Source of the DNA: a virus
Length of the DNA stretch: 27,327 nt
IMG/VR virus record: IMGVR_UViG_3300031746_000138
Location: 1 to 27,327 of that record
Strand: one strand, 5' to 3'
Shown here: one piece after another, positions 644 through 12,688 of the stretch
Numbering within the stretch: the first letter of the stretch is position 1
How the letters are laid out: each line of letters starts with the position of its first letter
Position numbers and translations under genes: made by a program
Notes under the pieces: generated by a model
Told to the model about the DNA's origin: nothing
Database searches by the model: none
The model's input: only the letters and a program-made list of their open reading frames with translations

Positions 644-1297
644 ATGAAATTAACCTTAGAAAAAAACCAAAAATTATTTTTTACATCGGATACGCATTAT
701 GCACATACGAATATATGCAGAGGAGTTACCTCTTGGAAAGATGCTGAGGATAAAACTAGAGATTTCAAAACTCTAGATGCGATGAATGCTGCTATTGTTA
801 ACAATATAAATACAAAAGTAGGTCAGGATGATATTTTAATTCATTTAGGTGATTTCAGTTTTGGTGGTTTTGATAAGATAATTGAATTTCGTAAACGAAT
901 AGTTTGTAAAAATATCATATTAGTTTATGGTAATCATGACCATCATATTCAAAGAAATAAGGACGGTGTTCAAGGATATTTCATGAAGACTACTCAATAT
1001 CTAAACTTATCAGTAGTATCAAATCCGGGAACATTATTAACTTCTGAAACACATTTTGTTTGTTTTCACTATCCAATTGCGAGTTGGGAGAATATGAATA
1101 AAGGAGTGTACCATTTATTTGGTCATGTACATTTACCGGGAAATAAAAAGTTATTGGATAATCGTAGTATGGATGTGGGTATGGATGGTAATAATTATAC
1201 TCCATACGAGTTGCATGAAGTAGTAAGAATTTTAAAATCACAATCGGTGAAATCATTATTACCATATAATGACCACCATGTAACCGAAGTACGATGA
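644..1297 (+). CDS. calcineurin-like metallophosphoesterase
   Basis: This 217-aa protein carries the full set of binuclear metallophosphoesterase motifs: D-T-H (D16, H18), GD (G69-D70), GNHDHH (N98, H99), an isolated His (H142 in FHYP) and GHVH (H161, H163). The family hydrolyses phosphomono- or diesters using two metal ions. The substrate cannot be read from the sequence. The gene starts a tightly packed operon (ATGA overlap with 1294) containing a polynucleotide-kinase-like protein and an RNA ligase, so removal of 2',3'-cyclic or 3'-phosphate ends is a plausible role. The central module of bacterial Pnkp uses this same fold. A general nucleotide phosphodiesterase is the alternative. The family call is secure; the role is inferred. 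Confidence 0.9.
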   Translation: MKLTLEKNQKLFFTSDTHYAHTNICRGVTSWKDAEDKTRDFKTLDAMNAAIVNNINTKVGQDDILIHLGDFSFGGFDKIIEFRKRIVCKNIILVYGNHDHHIQRNKDGVQGYFMKTTQYLNLSVVSNPGTLLTSETHFVCFHYPIASWENMNKGVYHLFGHVHLPGNKKLLDNRSMDVGMDGNNYTPYELHEVVRILKSQSVKSLLPYNDHHVTEVR

Positions 1298-1983: not shown

Positions 1984-2570
1984 TAAATAATTTTAGTACT
2001 TTAAAACCATTTATAACTTTTACTTCACCTTCGGATTTCTATTTCCTACAAATACTAAAGCGTAGAAAAGATAATCCAGGTCAAACCGGTGATGTACATG
2101 TAATTCATAATTATTTTATCTATTCAGTTGAACAATATGAATCATTGGAAGAAAAAGTAATTAAACTATGTACCGATAATAATGCTCGTGCATATTTGAG
2201 ATTGAACAAACGGAATGATTACAAAATAGGATTACAGGTTCTTAGAAAATCAGCACAATTACTTGCAGATGGTAATCCTAAAGCTATTAAAAATGTTTAC
2301 GAATCAGTATGCGGTGAATTTCATCATGACCCAATTAAAAAATGGATTGTAGATATTGATGTTCATTATCCAGATAATCAAGTTACTGCATTTGCAATAT
2401 CCGAATTTATTTCTAAAATTGAACCGATTGGACCTAAAGTTTTAGCTAATATTCCTACTAAAAATGGTTTGCATTTGATTACTACAGCTTTTAATAAAGC
2501 TAAGTTTAAAGAAATTTATTCTGAAATCGACATTCACGGCGATAACCCCACTGTTTTGTTTTGTTTATGA
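1980..2570 (+). CDS. primase-polymerase (AEP)-like protein, tentative
   Basis: 196 aa. Three short motifs appear in the order expected of the archaeo-eukaryotic primase fold. WIVDIDVH has D125 and D127 (hhhDhD). TKNGLHLIT has H165 (sxH-like). YSEIDIHGDNPT has D184 (hD). The N-terminal 110 residues are unassigned, with a helical middle. The gene sits between a kinase-like gene and an RNA ligase, overlapping each neighbour by 4 nt, so it probably joins the same end-processing pathway. An AEP enzyme could add nucleotides to ends before ligation; bacterial LigD likewise pairs an AEP polymerase with a phosphoesterase and a ligase. The motifs are short and the fold call is inferential. A different nucleotidyltransferase-like family is possible. 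Confidence 0.5.
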   Translation: MINNFSTLKPFITFTSPSDFYFLQILKRRKDNPGQTGDVHVIHNYFIYSVEQYESLEEKVIKLCTDNNARAYLRLNKRNDYKIGLQVLRKSAQLLADGNPKAIKNVYESVCGEFHHDPIKKWIVDIDVHYPDNQVTAFAISEFISKIEPIGPKVLANIPTKNGLHLITTAFNKAKFKEIYSEIDIHGDNPTVLFCL

Positions 2571-3661
2571 AATCATACGACTTAAATTTAATACAAAAGT
2601 ATATTGATGATGGATTGTTGGAAGTGCAAAAGCATCCAACTCTTCCATTAAAGATATACAACTATTCTAGGGAAGTCTCTTTCGAAAAAAAGTGGGATGA
2701 AATAACCTTAGCAATGAGAGGAACTATATTAGATGATACCGGAACCTTAATAACTAAAGGTTATGATAAGTTTTTCAATTATGAAGAACTACAATTATCT
2801 GATATACCTACTGATTCAGGATATATTACCGTTCAAGATAAAGCTGATGGGTCGTTAGGAATATTGTTTAACTATGCTAATGAATGGATTCTAGCTACTA
2901 GAGGTTCATTTACTTCTGACCAAGCTATTAAAGGAATGGAAATACTAAAGTCAAAATATGATTTATCTAAATTTGATAAGTCAATTACATACTTGTCTGA
3001 AATTATTTATCCGGAAAACCAAATTGTAGTTAATTATGACGGTGAAGAAAAACTAGTATTTACATCATGTGTTCGTACTTTAAATGGAAAAGAATTTGAT
3101 TGGGAAGAATCTTTAAAAATATTATTTGAATCAGGAATAAATTCTGAGGATGTAGTACCATATACAAATGTGTCATCTGGTGATATAGCAGCTTTTGCAA
3201 ATGAGTTAAAATCTAAAAATCTAAATAATAAGGAAGGATATGTATTACGATTCTATCCTTCTAACTTTAGAATGAAGATTAAGTTTGAAGACTATTGCAG
3301 GTTACACCGTTTAATGACTAACTTTTCCAATGTAGATATATGGGAATGTTTAATGAAAGGTGATGATATAACCGGATATCTAGATAATGTACCTGATGAA
3401 TTTGATGACTGGGTTAGAAATACAATTAAAGAATTACAATTTAAGTTTGATATTCTTAAAGATGAATATGAAAAAGAGTTCTGGACATTGTTTGATAAAA
3501 AAGAATTTGCTATGAAAATTGAATCTAATCCAAATAAGCATATTCTATTTAAGAGATTAAATTCAGTGTCTAAAGTATATGATGAAATGATTTGGAAAAA
3601 GATTAGACCGGTATATCAAAAACCATTTTGGCAAACTAAAACAAATTTAGAAGTAGAATGA
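2567..3661 (+). CDS. T4 Rnl1-type RNA ligase
   Basis: 364 aa from the ATG at 2567, which overlaps the previous stop as ATGA. A TTG two codons upstream is less likely. Nucleotidyltransferase motifs are in order: K92-A-D-G (motif I, adenylated Lys), ATRGSF about residues 110-115 (Ia), YLSEIIY about 142-148 (III), EGYVLRF about 223-229 (IV) and MKIKFEDY about 236-243 (V). Length and layout match T4 RNA ligase 1 (374 aa), which joins 5'-phosphate and 3'-OH RNA ends using ATP. In T4 it repairs tRNA cleaved by host anticodon nucleases. With the kinase-like and phosphoesterase genes upstream, this protein would perform the sealing step. The ligase call is strong; tRNA as substrate is inferred. Confidence 0.93.
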   Translation: MKSYDLNLIQKYIDDGLLEVQKHPTLPLKIYNYSREVSFEKKWDEITLAMRGTILDDTGTLITKGYDKFFNYEELQLSDIPTDSGYITVQDKADGSLGILFNYANEWILATRGSFTSDQAIKGMEILKSKYDLSKFDKSITYLSEIIYPENQIVVNYDGEEKLVFTSCVRTLNGKEFDWEESLKILFESGINSEDVVPYTNVSSGDIAAFANELKSKNLNNKEGYVLRFYPSNFRMKIKFEDYCRLHRLMTNFSNVDIWECLMKGDDITGYLDNVPDEFDDWVRNTIKELQFKFDILKDEYEKEFWTLFDKKEFAMKIESNPNKHILFKRLNSVSKVYDEMIWKKIRPVYQKPFWQTKTNLEVE

Positions 3662-4371: not shown

Positions 4372-4421
4372 TTGAGAATCAATATGTTAAAAACAATACC
4401 CTTGATTCTCAATTAGTTATA
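4372..4421. repeat. palindromic operator-like element pair, region C
   Basis: A reverse copy with core TTGAGAATCAA (4372-4382) has a degenerate tail. The forward copy TTGATTCTCAATTAGTTATA is at 4402-4421. The forward copy ends 19 bp before the -33 TTG at 4441, the same distance as in region D. Confidence 0.75.
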
Positions 4422-4440
4422 GCACTTGAATATTTTGTGC

Positions 4441-4470
4441 TTGTAACTATGGTTTTCTTCCTTATATTTA
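4441..4470 (+). promoter_or_regulatory. Bacteroidota-type promoter with conserved leader
   Basis: TTG 4441-4443, 19-bp spacer, TATATTTA 4463-4470. From CTTATATTTAAG through the leader to the ATG and one base beyond, about 37 nt are identical to the promoter cassette at 6558. Both also share ATTTTGTGCTTGT at the -33 box. The leader, about 20 nt, is purine-rich and has no Shine-Dalgarno match. Confidence 0.8.
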
Positions 4471-4494
4471 AGTATAGATAAAAAGAACAGAAAA

Positions 4495-5085
4495 ATGATA
4501 AATCCAAAATGCGAGTGCGGCGGAACTGTAAAAATCAAAAATCATCAAAGATGGATTGGTTATTATTGCCCCGATTGTAAAAAAGGAGGTTCAATGCAAA
4601 AGGATAAGTCAGGTAATGCAATAGCATCAACACCGAAACAGCACAAACCGGGAAAAGTGTTTAAGAGGTTTGGGTCAAAGGTTAAGAGACATCAATTACC
4701 TACCACCCCGGTATCTAATTGCAGTTGTGTTCCGGGCCAACCGTATAACAATATAACTTGTAAAGTTCACGGGCCCGTTTCAGTCACGAAAGTGAAACTG
4801 ACACCGGAATTGCCCTTGGCCCCTGTGGTAACTTTTAATTCGGATATTATCAGCTACACAAAGGAAAATTTGACTTTTAGTATGTATATTTCAGAAATGA
4901 GTCAAATCAGTACTTCAGGTAGTGTGCTAACCAAAGGATTTAATTTGAAACGACCTGATACTGGAACTATGATGCATTTTACTGCTACTGAAATAGATAA
5001 AAATGATGATGAAATTGAAGGATGGTGGTATTCAGGAAAAACTGCTGATGGGAAAGTTTGTAGATTCTTAATCATAAATGACTAA
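4495..5085 (+). CDS. zinc-ribbon-containing hypothetical protein, 196 aa
   Basis: The N-terminus forms a zinc ribbon: C6-x-C8 and C25-x-x-C28 (YYCPDCKK). A second Cys/His cluster follows a basic linker: C76-x-C78, C89 and H92. Residues 45-70 are strongly basic (KPGKVFKRFGSKVKRHQ). The C-terminal half (about 105-196) looks like a beta-rich domain (FSMYISEMSQIS, then TGTMMHFTATEI and WWYSGKTADG). Zinc ribbons with basic linkers usually bind nucleic acid or partner proteins; no specific function can be given. The start is fixed by the conserved promoter leader. It is the first gene of a unit running to 6375. Confidence 0.85.
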   Translation: MINPKCECGGTVKIKNHQRWIGYYCPDCKKGGSMQKDKSGNAIASTPKQHKPGKVFKRFGSKVKRHQLPTTPVSNCSCVPGQPYNNITCKVHGPVSVTKVKLTPELPLAPVVTFNSDIISYTKENLTFSMYISEMSQISTSGSVLTKGFNLKRPDTGTMMHFTATEIDKNDDEIEGWWYSGKTADGKVCRFLIIND

Positions 5086-5311
5086 AATGAGTGACGAACA
5101 ATTAAGGTTTTATAATAGGAAGTACTTAAACAAGAAAGTAGATGTTATGACCGACAGAGGTCAATATGTCGGGATTCTTGGATTCATTGGCCCGAACACC
5201 ATATTGGGTTGGGAGCTATCTATGACTATTGGCAGAACTCCTGTTCACATAAAAGAAATTTTCTCAATCAAATTGTACTCTGAACCCGACCGTATTTATG
5301 ACAAAATCTAA
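5078..5311 (+). CDS. hypothetical small beta-barrel protein, 77 aa
   Basis: The frame begins with ATG at 5078, inside the previous gene's end, or at a second ATG (5087) one base after that gene's stop, which may be the true start. After a short helix (EQLRFYNRKYL), the protein shows a strand-turn-strand series (KVDVMTDRGQYVGILGFIG, then TILGWEL) that looks like an SH3- or Sm-like small barrel. No catalytic residues stand out. It overlaps the next gene by 14 nt, so the two are probably translationally coupled. Confidence 0.75.
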   Translation: MTKMSDEQLRFYNRKYLNKKVDVMTDRGQYVGILGFIGPNTILGWELSMTIGRTPVHIKEIFSIKLYSEPDRIYDKI

Positions 5312-5633
5312 ACGATTCTTTCACGCTACCACTATTACGAATGCTTACTCTATTAAAGATGAAGGATTGAAACCGTTATTCGGTGAAGTATATTTAACCG
5401 ATTCAATTGAAAGTGCTTGTAGGTGGATGGGATTTCGATTAAAAGCGATGGGTGAAACGGTAATGGCAGTAATTGAAGTTGAAGCTGATGAAAGTAAATT
5501 GATTGAAGGAACAGACCACTCACCAGAAATGGTAAAGATTTTCGGAGTCGGCAAATCATTAGTTTCAGAAAAACGAATACCAAAAAGTAGAATTAAACGA
5601 GTTCATTATTTTAGATTAACCGACCCAAAATGA
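5298..5633 (+). CDS. ADP-ribosyltransferase-fold protein (KptA/Arr-like)
   Basis: The 111-aa protein follows the compact ADP-ribosyltransferase pattern of RNA 2'-phosphotransferase (KptA/Tpt1) and rifampin-ART proteins: FFHATT with H9, then a helix and SIKDEGLKP, then VYLTD with Y32, then a helix of the kind that carries the A-x-x-x-x-G segment. A strand (VMAVIEVEAD) and a terminal VSEKRIPKSRIKRVHYF segment follow. These families use NAD+ to modify RNA, proteins or drugs, or to remove a 2'-phosphate from spliced RNA. The catalytic set here is only partly recognisable, so activity is uncertain. The RNA ligase operon nearby makes a KptA-like RNA role attractive; host-protein ADP-ribosylation, as in T4 ModA/ModB, is the alternative. 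Confidence 0.6.
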   Translation: MTKSKRFFHATTITNAYSIKDEGLKPLFGEVYLTDSIESACRWMGFRLKAMGETVMAVIEVEADESKLIEGTDHSPEMVKIFGVGKSLVSEKRIPKSRIKRVHYFRLTDPK

Positions 5634-5857
5634 TAATCAACGACAACCAAATTAAAGAAATAATTCTTAAGGAAGTAACTGATTTAGTAGAGTGGCTCGA
5701 TATTATCAGAGCTTATATCTACGAAAAGAAAGGAGTTGATATTGGCCAAATTAAATACCCGAATCCAAATCATCCTCATTTTCAATTATTTTTAATTGCT
5801 CAGGATACATGTTGGAATTATTATGCTAAAAAACTTTTAAAACCGATAACCGAATAA
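5630..5857 (+). CDS. hypothetical protein, 75 aa
   Basis: No family recognised. The protein is mostly helical: residues 7-35 form an amphipathic helix (IKEIILKEVTDLVEWLDIIR), a proline/asparagine-rich turn follows (YPNPNHPHF), then a second helix with W-N-Y-Y. No membrane segment or signal is seen. It overlaps its upstream neighbour as ATGA and its stop shares a base with the next start, so it is part of the 4495-6375 unit. Confidence 0.75.
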   Translation: MIINDNQIKEIILKEVTDLVEWLDIIRAYIYEKKGVDIGQIKYPNPNHPHFQLFLIAQDTCWNYYAKKLLKPITE

Positions 5858-6375
5858 TGGATACGAACAAATTTGTAGATTATTGCCACAACAGACATGA
5901 CCGAGTTTGCAATCAGACTTACTCACCTGGAATTCCATATTCCTTTCATTTACGAATGGTTGAAGAACAGGTAAGAAAGTTTGGAAAATTACTTGACCCG
6001 TCCGTATATGACTTAGTACTGATGGGCGCTTCCGGGCACGATTTAATTGAAGATGCTAGGGTAACTTATGGTGACTTAGTAGGAATGGTTGGTGTTGATG
6101 TTTCAGAAATCATTTTCCTTTGTACTGAAATGCGAGGACGATATCGTGCAGACCGTAAAAATGATGCATTCTATGAAGACCTTAAGACTAATAAACTAGC
6201 AGTGTTTGTTAAATTATGTGATATCATTGCCAATGTTAAATTTGGATTCTTAGAAAATTCTAAGCAATTTCAAAGAGCAAAGGATGAATATCCAAAAATC
6301 AAAGGTAATTTATATTGTGAAGAATATAAACCGATGTTCGATTACTTGGAAAGCATATTTGATATCAAACATTAA
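5857..6375 (+). CDS. SpoT/MESH1-like HD hydrolase
   Basis: 172 aa matching the HD hydrolase half of RelA/SpoT and the stand-alone MESH1 family: RHDRVCNQ (H14), GIPYSFH (H31), GHDLIED (H61-D62 and E65-D66) and VKLCDIIANV (D122, N126), which is the equivalent of the SpoT KLADRLHN stretch. There is no synthetase, TGS or ACT domain. The family uses a metal ion to remove pyrophosphate from (p)ppGpp, and MESH1 also acts on NADPH. A phage copy could blunt the host stringent response or adjust nucleotide pools during infection; this is inference. It is the last gene of its unit, followed by a hairpin at 6420. Confidence 0.85.
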   Translation: MDTNKFVDYCHNRHDRVCNQTYSPGIPYSFHLRMVEEQVRKFGKLLDPSVYDLVLMGASGHDLIEDARVTYGDLVGMVGVDVSEIIFLCTEMRGRYRADRKNDAFYEDLKTNKLAVFVKLCDIIANVKFGFLENSKQFQRAKDEYPKIKGNLYCEEYKPMFDYLESIFDIKH

Positions 6376-6419
6376 ATACGCCTCAAATCCTGGGTATAGT
6401 ATTAGGTAAGTTTATAGAC

Positions 6420-6433
6420 GCCCTTCTAAGGGC
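6420..6433 (+). terminator. probable intrinsic terminator hairpin
   Basis: GCCCT (6420-6424), loop TCTA, AGGGC (6429-6433), followed by TTATTGTTTGTTG, which is T-rich but interrupted. It lies 44 nt after the HD hydrolase stop and just before operator region D. The stem is only 5 bp, so termination may be partial. Confidence 0.5.
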
Positions 6434-6443
6434 TTATTGTTTG

Positions 6444-6538
6444 TTGATAATCAATTAGTTATAACTCATTGAGAATCAAGATAATAGGTATTAATATTAT
6501 TAATTCAAATCAATGGTATTGATAATCAATTAGTTATA
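6444..6538. repeat. palindromic operator-like elements, region D (three copies)
   Basis: A forward copy (6444-6463, TTGATAATCAATTAGTTATA) overlaps a reverse copy ending at 6479 across AGTTATAACT (6457-6466). A second forward copy, identical to the first, is at 6519-6538. The last copy ends 19 bp before the -33 TTG at 6558, as in region C. The AT-only stretch between copies (about 6481-6510) shows nothing else. Confidence 0.75.
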
Positions 6539-6557
6539 GATTTATGTAATTTTGTGC

Positions 6558-7558: not shown

Positions 7559-8647
7559 ATGAAAAAACCAGTAAAAGTTAAAATTTTAGGCAAAGGTGAT
7601 TGGATTACTATCACAAAAGGAAAGGCTATATGGAATTCTGATATGAGCCAATTCATAGGAAAGACAGTTAAGGTTTATAAAAAAGAAGGACAGGATGTCA
7701 TATTCAAAAATATCAAAGGTAAACGAGGTACCAATGATTCAAATCAATATTACTGGAGGCAATCAGCAGGGCATTACCGGGCTGCGACATTATCAGAAAT
7801 TTCAAAAGTCATTCACGCTGTACCTATAACACCTACTTTTAAGGTTGGCGATTGGGTAGTAATTATTAATTCAGGTAAAAATTGGGTATCTGAAATGAAT
7901 AAAAGAACCGGTAAAGTAGTTCAATTAACCAATGTAGTAGGTAATGACTGTATTGGATTTGCAGATGATGGTAGTTGGACCTGGAGTTATAGCGATGGAC
8001 ATTTCAGAAAAGCTACTAAGGCAGAAATTTTAAAAGCTACAGCAGCTTTAACTACTCCGGAATTATTAGGATATAAAGCTCCTATTGATTACTATGGTGG
8101 ATTAGTTAAAAAGGATTCAATAGCATTGGTTTCTAGTAAATTAGGAACTACATATGCTATTCGTAGTTATCGTTTGCCACAAGAAATAGTTGAAACCTGG
8201 GTTAAAGTTTATAAAGACCCTGCACCAGCTTTTAAAGTAGGTGATTATATTGTTGCAAAGGAAAAGGTTTCGTATTTATCAAAAGGTAAAATTGCTAAGA
8301 TTTTTAGAATAGACGGTGAATCTGTTAGATATTCGCACGCTGCAGAAGAAGAAGATTTTGCACCGATGAAAGAATTACAAAGAAATTGCCGGTTAGCTAC
8401 TAAAACTGAAATTGCTGAATCTTTAAAAGTAGTAATTGGTGGATATGAAGCCGAAACTACCAGAAGTTCTGTATCATTTCGTGGTGAAAAATATGGTAAA
8501 TCTGAATTGGAATCGTTAATCAAATTAGCGGCTGAAAAACTATTTGAAAAGCATCCAAATCAAATAAAATCATTGAATGTTGGTTGTAGTGGACAATATA
8601 AAGTTGAATTAAGTACTTTAAAGAAATTGCAAGCTAAATTAAAATAG
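7559..8647 (+). CDS. threefold SH3-like repeat protein, 362 aa
   Basis: Three divergent copies of a beta-rich unit are visible at about residues 5-84, 93-160 and 223-288. Each has a GDWI/GDWVV/GDYIV strand near its start and ends with an R-x-A-T-x-x-E-I motif (YRAATLSEI, FRKATKAEI, CRLATKTEI). Copies 2 and 3 open with almost the same F-K-V-G-D phrase. A linker (about 168-215) and a C-terminal region (about 295-362, helix plus KVELSTLKKLQ) are unassigned. The repeats look like SH3-like barrels, which bind peptides, walls or nucleic acid. There is no signal peptide, so a cytoplasmic binding role is more likely. It is followed by a long hairpin element. Confidence 0.8.
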   Translation: MKKPVKVKILGKGDWITITKGKAIWNSDMSQFIGKTVKVYKKEGQDVIFKNIKGKRGTNDSNQYYWRQSAGHYRAATLSEISKVIHAVPITPTFKVGDWVVIINSGKNWVSEMNKRTGKVVQLTNVVGNDCIGFADDGSWTWSYSDGHFRKATKAEILKATAALTTPELLGYKAPIDYYGGLVKKDSIALVSSKLGTTYAIRSYRLPQEIVETWVKVYKDPAPAFKVGDYIVAKEKVSYLSKGKIAKIFRIDGESVRYSHAAEEEDFAPMKELQRNCRLATKTEIAESLKVVIGGYEAETTRSSVSFRGEKYGKSELESLIKLAAEKLFEKHPNQIKSLNVGCSGQYKVELSTLKKLQAKLK

Positions 8648-8661
8648 AAATCAATTGCTAG

Positions 8662-8749
8662 AAATCATTTTCCATATAATAGGTATATGCCCGGACTCAT
8701 TTATGCATTTGGACTTATTAGATATTATATCTTTATATGGAAATGATTT
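8662..8749 (+). ncRNA. candidate structured RNA closed by a 17-bp helix
   Basis: AAATCATTTTCCATATAA (8662-8679) pairs with TTATATGGAAATGATTT (8733-8749): 17 bp with a single bulged T. The 53-nt interior has a second hairpin AGATA-TTA-TATCT, a possible ATGC (8687-8690) / GCAT (8705-8708) stem, and a GGACT repeat (8694-8698 and 8711-8715). It fills most of the 150-nt gap between 8647 and 8798. There is no T tract after it, so it is not a standard terminator. It could be a small RNA, an RNase III processing site or a DNA-level inverted repeat. Confidence 0.5.
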
Positions 8750-8797
8750 GTTAGTATTAACTAAAAATCTTAAATTAAAAATAATAAAATAGAAAAA

Positions 8798-9016
8798 ATG
8801 AAAATCTTGTACTTAATTTTTAGCGTTCTTACTGCTATGCTTGGTTATACCATACATGGTAGTATCTTTTGGTGTATAATGGATTTTATCTTTACTCCGA
8901 TTACTTGGGTTAAATGGATAATATTTCATGAAATAACAGCATCAGTATTTCAACAAACATTTCCCTGGTTCTTTAACAGCATCAGTATTTCAACAAACAT
9001 TTCCCTGGTTCTTTAA
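8798..9016 (+). CDS. small membrane protein with altered C-terminus, 72 aa
   Basis: Two hydrophobic segments are visible, about residues 1-17 (ILYLIFSVLTAMLGYTI) and 22-46 (SIFWCIMDFIFTPITWVKWI), followed by a tail. This is a small inner-membrane protein of a type common in phages, with no known function. The last 14 residues (SISISTNISLVL region) are read from a frame-shifted second copy of a 40-bp tandem duplication (8934-9016). Without it the protein would end WFFN at about 58 aa. It is the first of the membrane-protein group reaching 11,044. Confidence 0.75.
   Translation: MKILYLIFSVLTAMLGYTIHGSIFWCIMDFIFTPITWVKWIIFHEITASVFQQTFPWFFNSISISTNISLVL
8934..9016 (+). repeat. perfect 40-bp tandem duplication
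   Basis: 8934-8976 is identical to 8974-9016: two exact copies at period 40 plus 3 shared bases. Because 40 is not a multiple of 3, the second copy is read in another frame and extends the 8798 gene. The copies show no substitutions, which suggests a recent event, or an assembly artefact. Confidence 0.95.
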
Positions 9017-9039
9017 TTAAAAAAATCACAAACAAAAAA

Positions 9040-9180
9040 ATGAAAACGTTAATCATTTATTTCACGGAAGATAAAAAATCTTACCAAATAGTAAAGCCTA
9101 CTCGAGAATTCAATAATGATTGGTCTGGGTTAGTTCAAGCAATAACCAAAGGTAATTATCATTCTTACGAAACCTTTTAA
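9040..9180 (+). CDS. small hypothetical protein, 46 aa
   Basis: The ATG at 9040 follows an A-rich leader and the frame stops at TAA 9178-9180. The product starts with a strand (MKTLIIYFTEDKKSYQIV) and ends with a helix containing NDWSGLVQAITKGNY. It recalls the 56-aa product at 3658 in its KVF/LIIYF start and NDW-x-x-LV helix. No function is known. Confidence 0.6.
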   Translation: MKTLIIYFTEDKKSYQIVKPTREFNNDWSGLVQAITKGNYHSYETF

Positions 9181-9231
9181 GTAAAATCAAATAACAAATA
9201 ACAATTAATTAAAAACAAAACAAAAAAGAAA

Positions 9232-10437
9232 ATGGACAAGAAATTGAAAAGAATTATCCTTGCAATATTTGCATCGGTATTGTTAATCGTTGCAGTATCA
9301 TTATCAGGTAAGATGTTTGAAAATGTAGATTCAGGTGAAATTGTAGTAATTCAAGATGCAATTGATGGTGATTTACATGTATTCACTACCGCAGGAATCA
9401 AACCGCAATGGTTTGGTACGGCTACACATTATAAGCGGTCATTCCAATATTCATTTACTAAGGCAATAGATGCGCACGGTGATAGTATAGATGCATCTAT
9501 TAAAGTTCGATTTAATGATGGTGGTCACGCACAATTATCCGGAGCGGTTCGTGTTGACTTACCGTTATCTGATAGTCTAATTATAATGATGCACCGCACT
9601 TATGGTAATCAACAAGCACTTGAAAATCAATTAATGTCGACAGTGATAACTAAGTCTGTATATATGACCGGACCATTAATGTCGTCAAAAGAATCATATG
9701 CTGAAAAGCGTAATGATTTAATATCATATATTGAAGACCAGGCATCTAACGGTGTATATAAAACTACTACTATTCAGAAACGTGTAAAAGACCCGATGGA
9801 TTCAACTGTTACAAAGACGGTATCTGTAGTTGAAATTATTGTAGGTACTACTAATCAATTACCGCTTCGTCAGGAACAAAGTCCTATTACTAAATTCGGT
9901 GTGAAACTTAATAACCTTAGTATTAGTTCAATTGACTATGATGCTAATGTTGAAAAACAAATTGAAGTGCAACAAAAAGCTACTATGCAGGTACAAACGG
10001 CTATTGCTAACGCTAAGCGTGCTGAGCAGGATAAGTTTACCGTTGAACAACAGGGTATGGCGGATGCTGCTAAGGCGAAGTGGGAACAAGAAGTTATTAA
10101 AGCTCAGAAAGTAACACAGGCTGAACAGGAACTTGAAGTTGCTAAACTTAATAAGCAAACCGAAGAGCAAAATAAAATTGCATTAACGCTTAAAGGTGAA
10201 GGGGAAGCAGCATATAAAAAGGCTGTTACTTTAGCAAATAATAACTTTGATAAGAAGGCTGATATTTGGCTAAAATCTCAAGAACTAATGTGGGATGCAT
10301 TTGCTAAATATCAAGGTAATATGGTACCTACTACTATTATGGGTAGTACCGGTAGTGGTAGTACATCAGCAATGGATTTTATGCAGATAATGACTGCTAA
10401 ATCGTTAAAAGATTTATCATTAGATGTAACTAAATAA
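9232..10437 (+). CDS. SPFH/Band-7 (prohibitin-like) membrane protein
   Basis: 401 aa. An N-terminal membrane anchor (about residues 8-26, ILAIFASVLLIVAVSLSG) is followed by a Band-7 domain (about 30-235), with the family's start (SGEIVVIQDAIDGDLHVFTTAG) and the beta-alpha pattern around SIKVRF. A long Ala/Gln/Glu-rich coiled coil spans about 240-325 (KATMQVQTAIANAKRAEQ). The tail has a Gly/Ser/Thr-rich turn. Band-7 proteins form membrane rings or scaffolds, and bacterial HflKC binds the FtsH protease. Phage copies may alter host membrane quality control or superinfection exclusion; that is inferred. A lipoprotein gene follows after 2 nt. Confidence 0.88.
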   Translation: MDKKLKRIILAIFASVLLIVAVSLSGKMFENVDSGEIVVIQDAIDGDLHVFTTAGIKPQWFGTATHYKRSFQYSFTKAIDAHGDSIDASIKVRFNDGGHAQLSGAVRVDLPLSDSLIIMMHRTYGNQQALENQLMSTVITKSVYMTGPLMSSKESYAEKRNDLISYIEDQASNGVYKTTTIQKRVKDPMDSTVTKTVSVVEIIVGTTNQLPLRQEQSPITKFGVKLNNLSISSIDYDANVEKQIEVQQKATMQVQTAIANAKRAEQDKFTVEQQGMADAAKAKWEQEVIKAQKVTQAEQELEVAKLNKQTEEQNKIALTLKGEGEAAYKKAVTLANNNFDKKADIWLKSQELMWDAFAKYQGNMVPTTIMGSTGSGSTSAMDFMQIMTAKSLKDLSLDVTK

Positions 10438-10439
10438 CT

Positions 10440-10718
10440 ATGAAATATATATTATTAGTCATTTCTATTGCATTCATATTTAGTTGTACAAATGTTAAAC
10501 GAAAAGATAAACCAGCTGCGCTTAAGTATAAAGCAGGTGACATGGTTTATCTTAAACCGGATTCAACTTTAGTATTAATAACTGAGGTTGACGGTAGGTC
10601 GTGTGCATGTGGCGGTGATGCTCAGTATAAGACAAAAGCTAAATCATCTGACATCGCATCGTGGAATGTTAATGAATCAGATATATTCGGTTTAAAAGAA
10701 ATACCTGAACAATTTTAA
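10440..10718 (+). CDS. lipoprotein, 92 aa
   Basis: MKYILLVISIAFIFSC is a classical lipoprotein signal with a lipobox ending at C16, so the mature chain would be lipid-anchored in the cell envelope. The mature part is short and soluble, with a KAGDMVYLKPDSTLVLITEV strand pattern and two close cysteines (CACGG, about residues 55-59). It starts 2 nt after the Band-7 gene and is probably co-translated, so an envelope complex or immunity role is possible. No family recognised. Confidence 0.75.
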   Translation: MKYILLVISIAFIFSCTNVKRKDKPAALKYKAGDMVYLKPDSTLVLITEVDGRSCACGGDAQYKTKAKSSDIASWNVNESDIFGLKEIPEQF

Positions 10719-10744
10719 TTATTCATTTAAAAGCAAAAAAAAAT

Positions 10745-11044
10745 ATGTGGTTACTAATTCAAGAATGTTTAGTGTTTTGTGTCGGTTTAATTATCTTTAG
10801 TCAAATTATTTTACCTTTATTGTTTCCTAGTATTGAAATGTTTTGGTTATTTAAAAGGTCAAAGGAAACTGAAATTGATGTAAAAAAAATTCAATGGTCT
10901 AAAGCTGGTGTACTTAGGCAAATTGAAAACGCTAAAATCAAAGTATCAGAAGTTAAAGATGAAGTGAAACAAATTCGTGATTTAACTAAGAATAAGTTAG
11001 ATGAAGCTAAGTCTCAAAAGGATGAAGCTGATAAGCTAATTTAA
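10745..11044 (+). CDS. membrane-anchored coiled-coil protein, 99 aa
   Basis: An N-terminal hydrophobic segment (about residues 2-36, including CLVFCVGLIIFSQIILPLLF) is followed by a charged coiled coil (about 42-99: GVLRQIENAKIKVSEVKDEV). It has one probable transmembrane span with a cytoplasmic or periplasmic helix. It sits directly after the Band-7 and lipoprotein genes, so the three may form one membrane complex. A spanin- or holin-like role cannot be excluded, but no lysis enzyme is adjacent. Confidence 0.7.
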   Translation: MWLLIQECLVFCVGLIIFSQIILPLLFPSIEMFWLFKRSKETEIDVKKIQWSKAGVLRQIENAKIKVSEVKDEVKQIRDLTKNKLDEAKSQKDEADKLI

Positions 11045-11051
11045 TTAGGTA

Positions 11052-11136
11052 AGTATAGTATGGCCGGGACGCTAAGCGTCACATACTGCTAATCCGCACA
11101 CAAGTTAGCATTAAGGTTCAATTCCTTTTTATACTA
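11052..11136 (+). ncRNA. tRNA-like structured RNA (possibly degenerate tRNA)
   Basis: AGTATAG (11052-11058) pairs with TTATACT (11129-11135) as a 7-bp acceptor-like stem with one G-T pair, followed by T8/A9-like TA. The T arm is convincing: AAGG, loop TTCAATT (11117-11123, matching TTCRANY) and CCTT, with G53-C61 kept. Instead of a standard D and anticodon arm, the middle has two perfect hairpins: AGTATG 11057-11062 / CATACT 11082-11087 enclosing GACGC-TAA-GCGTC, and GCTAA 11088-11092 / TTAGC 11105-11109. A CTGCTAA string (11086-11092) resembles a Ser-GCT anticodon loop but has no stem. No 3' CCA is encoded. It is either a decayed tRNA or a tRNA mimic. Confidence 0.5.
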
Positions 11137-11151
11137 CAAATCAATAAATTT

Positions 11152-11394
11152 ATGAAAACAATACGAAGAAAGGTAGCTTCAAATGAAGCATCTGGAGTAG
11201 ATGGGTTTGAGTACAAAAGAGTATCAAACGAGAAAGCTGATGAATTAGTTAAAAAGAGTGGTTACACTTTTACATCTAAAAAAAGCTGGAAAGTAAATGT
11301 TAGAGATATTCAACCCGCAAAACCTGTTAAGGAAGTTACGGTAGTTGATTCAGTACCTAAAGTAAAAGTTAAAAATAAAGATAAAAAATATTAA
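11152..11394 (+). CDS. hypothetical basic protein, 80 aa
   Basis: No family recognised. The N-terminal two thirds contain a short helix with SNEKADELVKKSGYTF and a strand KSWKVNVRDI. The C-terminus is Val/Lys/Pro-rich and probably disordered (VPKVKVKNKDKKY). The high net positive charge hints at nucleic-acid or capsid association, without proof. It lies between the tRNA-like element and operator region E. Confidence 0.7.
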   Translation: MKTIRRKVASNEASGVDGFEYKRVSNEKADELVKKSGYTFTSKKSWKVNVRDIQPAKPVKEVTVVDSVPKVKVKNKDKKY

Positions 11395-11444
11395 TGAACG
11401 ATTTGGCATTATCACCGGAAGCCTATTTAGGCGAAAAACTATAA
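11394..11444 (+). CDS. possible micro-ORF, 16 aa
   Basis: An ATG that shares a base with the preceding TAA opens MNDLALSPEAYLGEKL and then stops. The codons look ordinary and the overlap suggests coupling, but a 16-codon frame can occur by chance. It contains the small palindrome GCCTATTTAGGC, and its stop overlaps operator region E. Confidence 0.25.
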   Translation: MNDLALSPEAYLGEKL

Positions 11445-11493
11445 CTCATTGATTCTCAATAAAATATCATTATTTGATTCTCAATGAGTTATA
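11440..11493. repeat. palindromic operator-like element pair, region E
   Basis: A reverse copy (11440-11459, minus strand TTGAGAATCAATGAGTTATA) and a forward copy (11474-11493, TTGATTCTCAATGAGTTATA) diverge. The forward copy is identical to that of region B. This is the last copy in the window, and none appears in the tail-gene half. Confidence 0.8.
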
Positions 11494-11497
11494 GGTA

Positions 11498-11523
11498 TTG
11501 ATGATATTAGAAAAAAGTATAAT
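11498..11523 (+). promoter_or_regulatory. weak promoter candidate in the 11,395-11,615 gap
   Basis: TTG at 11498-11500 is followed after 17 bp by TATAAT (11518-11523), 4 bp downstream of the region E forward element. It lacks the CTTATATTTAAG signature of the other four promoters. The remaining sequence to 11,615 is AT-rich, with a weak AAGC/GCTT stem near 11,592 and nothing else I can name. Confidence 0.35.
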
Positions 11524-11615
11524 ATAAGCAATAAGAGCTTATTAAATCTAGGTATATTTAGATATCACGCAGTATATTATAATTAAATCTTGAAGCTCTA
11601 AGGGCTTAAAATCTT

Positions 11616-11813
11616 ATGCAAAACGGAATATTTAATCGACAATTCGGAATATATTTACTCAAATGGCAATTAGGCACATTCGTAGCTGTTCCCTGCATGT
11701 ATTTATTCTCAGATTATATGAAACTACCTTATTGGGCATCGGTTATCCTGTTCAATTTTGTTGGTGCATTAATCTTTTATAGAATTGATGCGTATATTTT
11801 TAGGAAAAAATAA
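11616..11813 (+). CDS. small two-span membrane protein, 65 aa
   Basis: Two hydrophobic segments are visible: about residues 12-32 (YLLKWQLGTFVAVPCMYLFS) and 38-56 (YWASVILFNFVGALIFYRID). A basic C-terminus (FRKK) favours both ends inside the cytoplasm. Proteins of this size and pattern are common in phages and have no known function. It is a holin candidate only by topology. The late promoter motif of the next gene begins 7 nt after its stop. Confidence 0.7.
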   Translation: MQNGIFNRQFGIYLLKWQLGTFVAVPCMYLFSDYMKLPYWASVILFNFVGALIFYRIDAYIFRKK

Positions 11814-11819
11814 ACCAGA

Positions 11820-11827
11820 TATTTATA
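11820..11827 (+). promoter_or_regulatory. late promoter motif TATTTATA
   Basis: TATTTATA, preceded by GA, ends 15 nt before the ATG at 11843 and is followed by ATAAATTC. It is the first of five such sites placed just before starts in the late half. Confidence 0.6.
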
Positions 11828-11842
11828 ATAAATTCATTCTAT

Positions 11843-12688
11843 ATGAAAGGTTACGAGTATTATCCGGAAACGAAAAGGTATTATCCTGTAGTAAATCAAG
11901 TAGTAACCAAAATAAAAAGTGGTGCCTATCATTTGATGTTAGATATGCAAAATAATGTAGCATTCTTTGAAGAAATACTTCCTAATTCAAATGAAATAAT
12001 TGAATTGCCTGGGATGCCTGTGACTCAAATATTAGAAGAAGTAGATAAATTCTGGACATCTAAAGACCAATATATTAATTTAAAATTACCATATAAAAGA
12101 GGAATTCTATTACATGGTAAACCGGGAACAGGTAAGACAACAGTTATTAAAAAGATATCAGATTATGTTGTTAAGAACGACGGTTTAGTATTTTATATTA
12201 ATTGGTTTAATGAGTTATCAGCAAAAATGCTTTTAACTTTTAGAGAAACGGAACCGGATAGGCCTATTGCTATTATATTTGAAGAAATCGATATTATGGT
12301 TGCAACGGAACAAGCCGCTTCAGAAACAGGTATGCTGCTAAACGCTTTAGATGGTATTTATAATTTGCATAATTTTATTTTTATAGCATCAACTAATGAC
12401 TTGAATTCAATACCTGATTCATTAAAGAAGCGTCCTAGTAGATTTGATATCGTACAAGAAATTGCATATCCGACAGCCGATGATAGAAGAGCATTTATTA
12501 CTTCTAAATTAGATGCTGAAAATCTTAAGAAGATTGATTTAGAAAAATGGATAGCTGATACTACTGATTTTGGAGTCGCACATATACAAGAATTAATCAT
12601 AAGCGTGTTTATATATAGTAAAAAATACGAGGCGGTTCTTAAAATATTAAAAGCTGAACACAAAAAAGTAGGATTTAAAACCTATTGA
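11843..12688 (+). CDS. AAA+ ATPase
   Basis: 281 aa. Walker A is GKPGTGKT (residues 92-99), Walker B IIFEEID (144-150), sensor-1 ASTND (N185), and the Arg-finger region is KKRPSRFD (R197, R200). These are typical of the FtsH/BCS1/Cdc48 classical AAA clade. The first 85 residues are a separate N-terminal domain (YHLMLDMQNNVAFFEE). There is no membrane segment and no protease motif. Such ATPases remodel or unfold protein partners. The position at the head of the late region, ahead of the sigma factor and tail genes, suggests a role in late expression or assembly (inference). Not a T4 gp44 clamp loader or gp41 helicase by motif. Confidence 0.88.
   Translation: MKGYEYYPETKRYYPVVNQVVTKIKSGAYHLMLDMQNNVAFFEEILPNSNEIIELPGMPVTQILEEVDKFWTSKDQYINLKLPYKRGILLHGKPGTGKTTVIKKISDYVVKNDGLVFYINWFNELSAKMLLTFRETEPDRPIAIIFEEIDIMVATEQAASETGMLLNALDGIYNLHNFIFIASTNDLNSIPDSLKKRPSRFDIVQEIAYPTADDRRAFITSKLDAENLKKIDLEKWIADTTDFGVAHIQELIISVFIYSKKYEAVLKILKAEHKKVGFKTY

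What the first reader, a model, noticed from the sequence alone, without database searches (positions are those of the whole stretch)
11052..11136. tRNA-like RNA with a good acceptor and T arm but a remodelled middle
Seen: 7-bp acceptor-like stem, T8/A9, and a perfect TTCAATT T-loop with G53-C61. The expected D and anticodon arms are replaced by two perfect hairpins (AGTATG/CATACT and GCTAA/TTAGC). Two strong alternative stems are unlikely in a randomly decaying tRNA. It could be a tRNA mimic, for example a decoy for tRNA-cutting host defences, which would suit a phage with an RNA ligase. That link is speculative.
Basis: partly seen in the sequence, partly recalled or inferred. Interest (0 to 1): 0.6.

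Follow-up and report, generated by a model that had tools for sequence, protein, structure and literature searches.

The report
Phage tRNA-like RNA without anticodon arm
Between two genes of a bacterial virus lies a short RNA that keeps the top half of a transfer RNA but has lost the part that reads the genetic code; related viruses carry similar stripped-down tRNA relatives between genes, so it is probably not used to make protein, although whether it has a job or is a relic is not proven.

Summary
The element is real and tRNA-related, but only its top half is. A covariance model of phage tRNAs picks exactly 11052-11136 (20.1 bits, E 0.0009; next best place 12.6 bits). Rfam tRNA agrees at 16.3 bits, below its cutoff of 29; ARAGORN finds no gene. 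No standard anticodon arm fits. It lies 7 nt after one stop codon and 15 nt before the next ATG, downstream of an SPFH/band-7 gene. Phages with a related SPFH gene often carry tRNAs or odd tRNA-likes there. In four of them (SPFH 84-88% identical) all four RNAs are non-canonical, 43-104 nt long. Acceptor and T helices stay paired, with changes on both sides in 9 of 12 pairs when this element is included. Over 22 odd RNAs, anticodon arms occur at chance level while D arms are kept. I read it as a non-decoding, tRNA-derived RNA, most likely a processing (punctuation) element; a decaying relic remains a serious rival for this copy. The RNA-ligase/decoy idea gains no support: ligase is absent from the four best relatives. 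Conservation of the two hairpins could not be tested.

The parts
11052..11136 (+). tRNA-like RNA, whole element (85 nt, ending at the discriminator A73)
   Evidence: R1 tRNA model 20.1 bits, E 0.0009; RF00005 16.3 bits over the whole model
11052..11058 (+). 5' acceptor strand AGTATAG
   Evidence: pairs with 11129-11135
11129..11135 (+). 3' acceptor strand TTATACT
11112..11128 (+). T arm TAAGG-TTCAATT-CCTTT (4 pairs and a T.T mismatch; standard T-loop)
11057..11087 (+). first remodelled arm: AGTATG/CATACT enclosing GACGC-TAA-GCGTC (11068-11080)
   Evidence: sequence and minimum-energy fold; relatives for this part not found
11087..11110 (+). second remodelled arm: TGCTAAT/GTTAGCA with a 10-nt loop, in the place of a variable arm
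   Evidence: minimum-energy fold; relatives not found
10745..11044 (+). upstream ORF (99 aa), stop codon 7 nt before the RNA
11152..11394 (+). downstream ORF (80 aa), ATG 15 nt after the RNA
9232..10437 (+). SPFH/band-7 protein gene (PF01145, phrog_11908), the landmark that relatives share

Best explanation
It is a tRNA-derived RNA that no longer decodes. It keeps the acceptor/T-arm half (the half recognised by RNase P, the tRNA 3'-end nuclease, CCA-adding enzyme and T-loop modifying enzymes; general knowledge) while the anticodon half has been rewritten. It occupies a slot between co-directional genes, downstream of an SPFH gene, where this phage group repeatedly carries tRNAs or such stripped RNAs. 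Most likely mechanism: the host's tRNA-processing enzymes cut it out of the phage's polycistronic transcript, trimming the upstream mRNA just after its stop codon and leaving the next gene a leader of about 15-25 nt (tRNA punctuation). Shown: tRNA-related top half, absence of a standard anticodon arm, tight fit between genes, paired but changing acceptor/T helices among relatives at comparable sites. Inferred: transcription, processing, and that processing is the selected function.
For: tRNA model E 0.0009 for the window, Rfam tRNA over the full model though below cutoff. Same-strand tRNA or tRNA-like elements within 1.5 kb downstream of the SPFH gene in 12 of 46 viral loci, some duplicated, against 4 upstream (counted); none downstream on the same strand in 43 genome-contig loci of the same protein family. 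In L005, L008, L009, L010 (SPFH 84-88% identical) all four RNAs are non-canonical but keep acceptor and T arm; with the window, 9 of 12 pairs change on both sides, 93% of cells paired, no shuffle as high. Among 22 odd RNAs a standard anticodon arm occurs in 6 (shuffles 21%), a D arm with GG in 14 (shuffles 11%); canonical tRNAs 31 and 30 of 33. Spacing 7 nt and 15 nt to the flanking genes; RNA end to next ATG 21-26 nt for seven of nine RNAs in the four relatives. No terminator-like site on the + strand at 8500-12000.
Against: No expression or cleavage data. This copy is the weakest fold of the set: T stem with a mismatch, AT-rich acceptor; in 50-100 nt of flanking sequence an alternative pairing is preferred (acceptor probability near 0), although one canonical phage tRNA behaves the same. 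Odd RNAs were recognised by their acceptor and T arms, so pair counts lean towards them. In L008 the spacing to the SPFH stop is 121 nt, and the window's RNA follows two small ORFs after SPFH, so the slot is comparable, not identical. No relative shares the middle.
Confidence: 0.42

Rival explanations
1. Relic: a former phage tRNA (perhaps of the long Leu/Ser type, since it is 85 nt with a variable-arm-like hairpin) that lost selection and is decaying.
For: Score below the tRNA cutoff; T.T mismatch, weak acceptor and poor folding in context; phages with tRNA arrays also contain degenerate members (L120 860-945 and 1407-1483); no relative of the middle.
Against: Acceptor 7/7 pairs and a standard T-loop survive while the anticodon arm does not; the same uneven loss is seen in many relatives, with both-sided changes in the helices; a packed gap of 107 nt holds little else.
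Confidence: 0.3
2. Functional but aberrant tRNA: a translating tRNA of unusual shape (D-arm reduced, long variable arm), for example with TAA exposed in the GACGC-TAA-GCGTC hairpin (Leu).
For: 85 nt suits a class II tRNA; a hairpin GGGAC-GCTAAGC-GTCAC with 4 of 5 pairs exists; relaxed ARAGORN fits a cloverleaf over the same span.
Against: No U33, the would-be anticodon loop can pair shut to a 3-nt loop; the relaxed ARAGORN fit has a 2-base anticodon; relatives show no consistent anticodon.
Confidence: 0.08
3. Free-standing tRNA mimic: an RNA that occupies enzymes or effectors acting on the tRNA top half (for example tail-cleaving nucleases, PNPase, modification enzymes), including the reader's decoy idea in a modified form.
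For: The retained elbow and acceptor resemble what bacterial Y RNA keeps (D, T and acceptor arms, PMC8394870), for which competitive inhibition of a tRNA nuclease has been proposed (PMC7790460); nucleases that cut tRNA tails in phage defence are known (PMC12851939); the window has an Rnl1-type ligase and kinase-like ORF.
Against: No anticodon loop, so not a decoy of anticodon nucleases by shape; ligases absent from the four relatives with the clearest odd RNAs.
Confidence: 0.12
4. Chance resemblance in an intergenic gap.
For: 11 of 300 shuffled windows contain an equally good acceptor+T match somewhere.
Against: E 0.0009 with a full model, placement exactly inside a 107-nt gap on the coding strand, downstream of the gene family near which tRNA-likes recur.
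Confidence: 0.07

Closest known systems
Phage-encoded tRNAs, including anticodon-loop variants thought to evade anticodon nucleases (PMC10264068)
   Same: Phage location between genes, acceptor stem, T arm with standard T-loop, no encoded CCA
   Different: Those keep a full cloverleaf and a working anticodon; here there is no standard D or anticodon arm and the score is below the tRNA cutoff
Bacterial Y RNA (YrlA) with Ro60/Rsr (PMC8394870, PMC7790460)
   Same: tRNA-like domain that keeps acceptor and T (and D) arms without decoding
   Different: No long Ro60-binding stem, only 85 nt, no TROVE gene in the window or in the contigs of L005, L008, L009, L010; RNAs with such an extended arm are seen instead in crAss001 and L148, both from genomes with a TROVE gene
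tRNA punctuation of polycistronic transcripts (known from mitochondria)
   Same: tRNA-like unit fitted tightly between co-directional genes
   Different: Here only inferred from spacing; no transcript data, and the unit is not a decoding tRNA
tRNA-like domain of tmRNA
   Same: Acceptor + T arm without an anticodon arm
   Different: No tmRNA match in the window, no G3.U70, no coding part

Membership tests
canonical tRNA | 7-bp acceptor stem and T arm with TTCRANY loop | tested here: met
   7 pairs with one G.U, T stem 4 of 5, loop TTCAATT
canonical tRNA | anticodon arm, 5 bp with a 7-nt loop and U33 | tested here: not met
   best fit with a proper loop has 2 of 5 pairs; ARAGORN none at default, 2-base anticodon at a relaxed setting
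canonical tRNA | tRNA model score above the family cutoff | tested here: not met
   RF00005 16.3 bits, cutoff 29
canonical tRNA | D arm with GG in the loop | tested here: inconclusive
   a 3-pair fit TGG-CCGGGACG-CTA exists, but shuffled middles give one in 11% of cases
bacterial Y RNA | Ro60/TROVE protein encoded in the genome | tested here: inconclusive
   none in the 27-kb window, which is a fragment; none in the contigs of the four key relatives
bacterial Y RNA | long Ro60-binding stem beside the tRNA-like domain | tested here: not met
   85 nt, two short hairpins; no Rfam match
tmRNA | match to the tmRNA model, with mRNA-like domain | tested here: not met
   no match
decoy for anticodon nucleases | an anticodon loop that such a nuclease could bind, and association with RNA repair genes | tested here: not met
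   no standard loop; ligases absent from the four closest cases
tRNA punctuation element | cut at both ends by RNase P and the tRNA 3' nuclease | not testable with these tools
   only spacing is available: 7 nt after a stop, 15 nt before an ATG

The most novel reading that the evidence does not exclude
Large phages carrying this SPFH-gene family encode a recurrent class of anticodon-less tRNA-like RNAs (acceptor, T arm and usually the D loop kept, anticodon half free to change or vanish) that work as transcript punctuation or as free mimics of the tRNA top half, and the window element is one of them.
Probability: 0.3. Interest if true: 0.75.

Novelty: new variant of a known kind. Interest (0 to 1): 0.5.

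Why it matters
Phage tRNAs are usually explained by codon supply or by resistance to anticodon nucleases. A set of phage tRNA-like RNAs that keep only the parts read by processing enzymes would need another explanation, and is missed by standard annotation: ARAGORN at default settings reports none of the non-canonical RNAs in the four relatives. It makes a simple question testable: are phage transcripts cut by host RNase P at such elements?

Tried and rejected
Y RNA: TROVE absent in the window and in the key relatives, no long arm. tmRNA domain: no match. RNA-ligase/decoy link: ligase families absent in G004, G007, G008, G009. Direct search for the hairpins in the viral collection: two exact patterns, no hits. 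Nearest relatives by the AAA gene: none confirmed; by the baseplate gene: 80 loci of about 50% identity, but none with an equivalent RNA apart from one tRNA array, L120. SPFH homologues in genome contigs: no same-strand tRNA-like within about 1.5 kb downstream in 43 loci. A 10-nt repeat TTAGGTAAGT shared with the gap at 6402 was dismissed: 10-mers repeat often by chance in 27 kb of AT-rich DNA. A GG(T/A)A motif at the 5' boundary in the window, L008, L009, L010 and G009b was seen but is too short to use.

Full report
What is there. At 11052-11136 (+) lies AGTATAG TA ... TAAGG TTCAATT CCTTT TTATACT A: a 7-pair acceptor-like stem (last pair G.U), T8 A9, a T arm of 4 pairs plus T.T, a standard T-loop and A73. 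ARAGORN finds nothing at default settings. Rfam tRNA aligns end to end with exactly this span at 16.3 bits, below the cutoff of 29. A model built here from 26 canonical tRNAs of related phages gives 20.1 bits, E 0.0009 for the window with filters off; the next best place scores 12.6. In shuffled windows an equally good acceptor plus T arm is found in 11 of 300, or 4 of 300 if the insert must be short. The top half is therefore very probably of tRNA origin.

The middle. The minimum-energy fold of the 85-mer is a four-way junction of acceptor (6 bp), a long first arm, a 7-bp second arm with a 10-nt loop, and the T arm. Two adjacent perfect hairpins of 5 bp or more occur in 10 of 1000 shuffles, yet the energy of the middle is average (389 of 1000). 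In 50-100 nt of flanking sequence an alternative pairing is preferred; limiting pairs to a span of 90 nt restores the tRNA-like fold at about 0.75. Of ten canonical phage tRNAs treated the same way, one is also lost completely, so this is a weak argument.

Place. The RNA fills a 107-nt gap between co-directional ORFs, 7 nt after a stop and 15 nt before an ATG. It lies downstream of an SPFH/band-7 gene at 9232-10437 (PF01145, phrog_11908), with two small ORFs between. No terminator-like site was found on the + strand at 8500-12000. The window is a virus record of 27 kb, probably a fragment of a larger tailed phage with a baseplate; the best annotated relatives of its baseplate wedge protein are Microcystis phage Mel-JY01, a 484-kb metagenomic phage and Flavobacterium phage immuto.

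Relatives. SPFH relatives were collected from viral contigs. Of 46 searched loci, some of which are duplicates, 12 have a same-strand tRNA or tRNA-like within 1.5 kb downstream at E 0.1 or better, against 4 within the same distance upstream (my count). In 43 genome-contig loci of the same protein family there is none downstream on the same strand. Many of the phage ones are not canonical: L005 (43 nt, acceptor and T arm only), L008 (79), L009 (104), L010 (77), L025 4199-4258 (anticodon arm missing), L016, L011 (6-nt anticodon loop), L012, L019 and L024.

Test of selection. L005, L008 and L010 have SPFH proteins 84-88% identical to that of L009. With the window added, the 12 acceptor/T pairs are kept in 93% of cells; 9 pairs show changes on both sides (shuffled mean 3.9, no shuffle of 500 as high; at most 4 with slid pairings). 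With 12 odd RNAs the figures are 95% and 11 of 12 pairs. Caveat: the odd RNAs were recognised by these very helices, so the counts lean towards them. A second check is less exposed to this: the pattern scan did not use D or anticodon arms. A standard anticodon arm is found in 6 of 22 odd RNAs (27%), about as in shuffled middles (21%), and in 31 of 33 canonical tRNAs; a D arm with GG is found in 14 of 22 (64%) against 11% of shuffles. So elbow and acceptor are kept and the anticodon half is not. The 22 include borderline cases (L120 860-945 is nearly a Ser tRNA), the long-armed crAss001 and L148 RNAs, and a few first seen with the covariance model.

Whole contigs of the four relatives show further odd RNAs at other loci (G009 69082-69156; G007 34616-34745; G004 5352-5436 and 6247-6366) and only one canonical tRNA, Ile-GAT in G009. 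The slot after a 202-aa gene holds the canonical Ile tRNA in G009 and a non-canonical 120-nt RNA at what looks like the matching place in G004; this matching rests on gene length and order only. The distance from RNA end to the next ATG is 15 nt in the window and 21-26 nt for seven of nine RNAs of the four phages.

Interpretation. What it works like: an RNA presenting the tRNA top half. That half suffices for RNase P, the 3' nuclease, CCA addition and T-loop modification (general knowledge), so such RNAs can be excised from a transcript. The tight spacing suggests punctuation as the most likely use; this step is inference. As to membership: it fails the anticodon test for tRNA, lacks the long stem of Y RNAs (YrlA as described in PMC8394870), and is not tmRNA. 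The relic hypothesis is the main rival for this particular copy, because its middle has no known relatives and its stems are the weakest of the set.

The mimic part is reasonable; the anticodon-nuclease decoy and the RNA-ligase link are not supported. The window does carry a T4 Rnl1-type ligase, an AAA_33 kinase-like ORF and a metallophosphoesterase, but the phages with the clearest odd RNAs have no ligase of either family in the contigs searched.

Limits. 

Noticed in passing
L006 2627-2708 (IMGVR_UViG_3300025584_000449): An 82-nt match to the tmRNA model (51.3 bits, cutoff 47; E 2e-19) with the tmRNA-type acceptor/D-loop/T arm and a G3.U70 pair, but about 14 nt in place of the 308-position interior: it looks like a stand-alone tmRNA tRNA-like domain without a message part, in a phage.
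   Followed up: partly
L052 970-1113 and 1225-1363 (crAss001, MH675552.1): Two tRNA-like RNAs with full acceptor and T arms (the first with a D arm) whose anticodon arm is replaced by a long insert lie just downstream of the TROVE/Ro60 gene gp96; they look like Y RNAs and are not in the annotation shown for the stretch.
   Followed up: partly
L148 1441-1540 (378-kb phage contig G035): tRNA-like RNA with a long paired arm in the place of the anticodon arm, in a genome that also has a TROVE gene about 70 kb away: candidate Y RNA.
   Followed up: partly
window 93, 3858, 4402, 6444, 6459, 6519, 11474: Seven copies (up to 3 mismatches, both strands) of a 21-bp element TTGATTCTCAATTAGTTATAG, those at 4402-6539 and 11474 in gaps between ORFs, none expected by chance: likely a phage promoter or operator motif.
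   Followed up: partly
window 644-1297, 1294-1710, 2561-3661: Metallophosphoesterase, AAA_33 kinase-like ORF and T4 Rnl1-type RNA ligase in one stretch, resembling an RNA repair set.
   Followed up: partly
L019 4261-4332 and 5095-5167: Two tRNAs with anticodon CTA (amber suppressor type) downstream of the SPFH gene; possible stop-codon recoding, not tested.
   Followed up: no
L012 5183-5985: About 800 nt that look non-coding, with several T-arm-like motifs, follow the SPFH gene; nature unknown.
   Followed up: no
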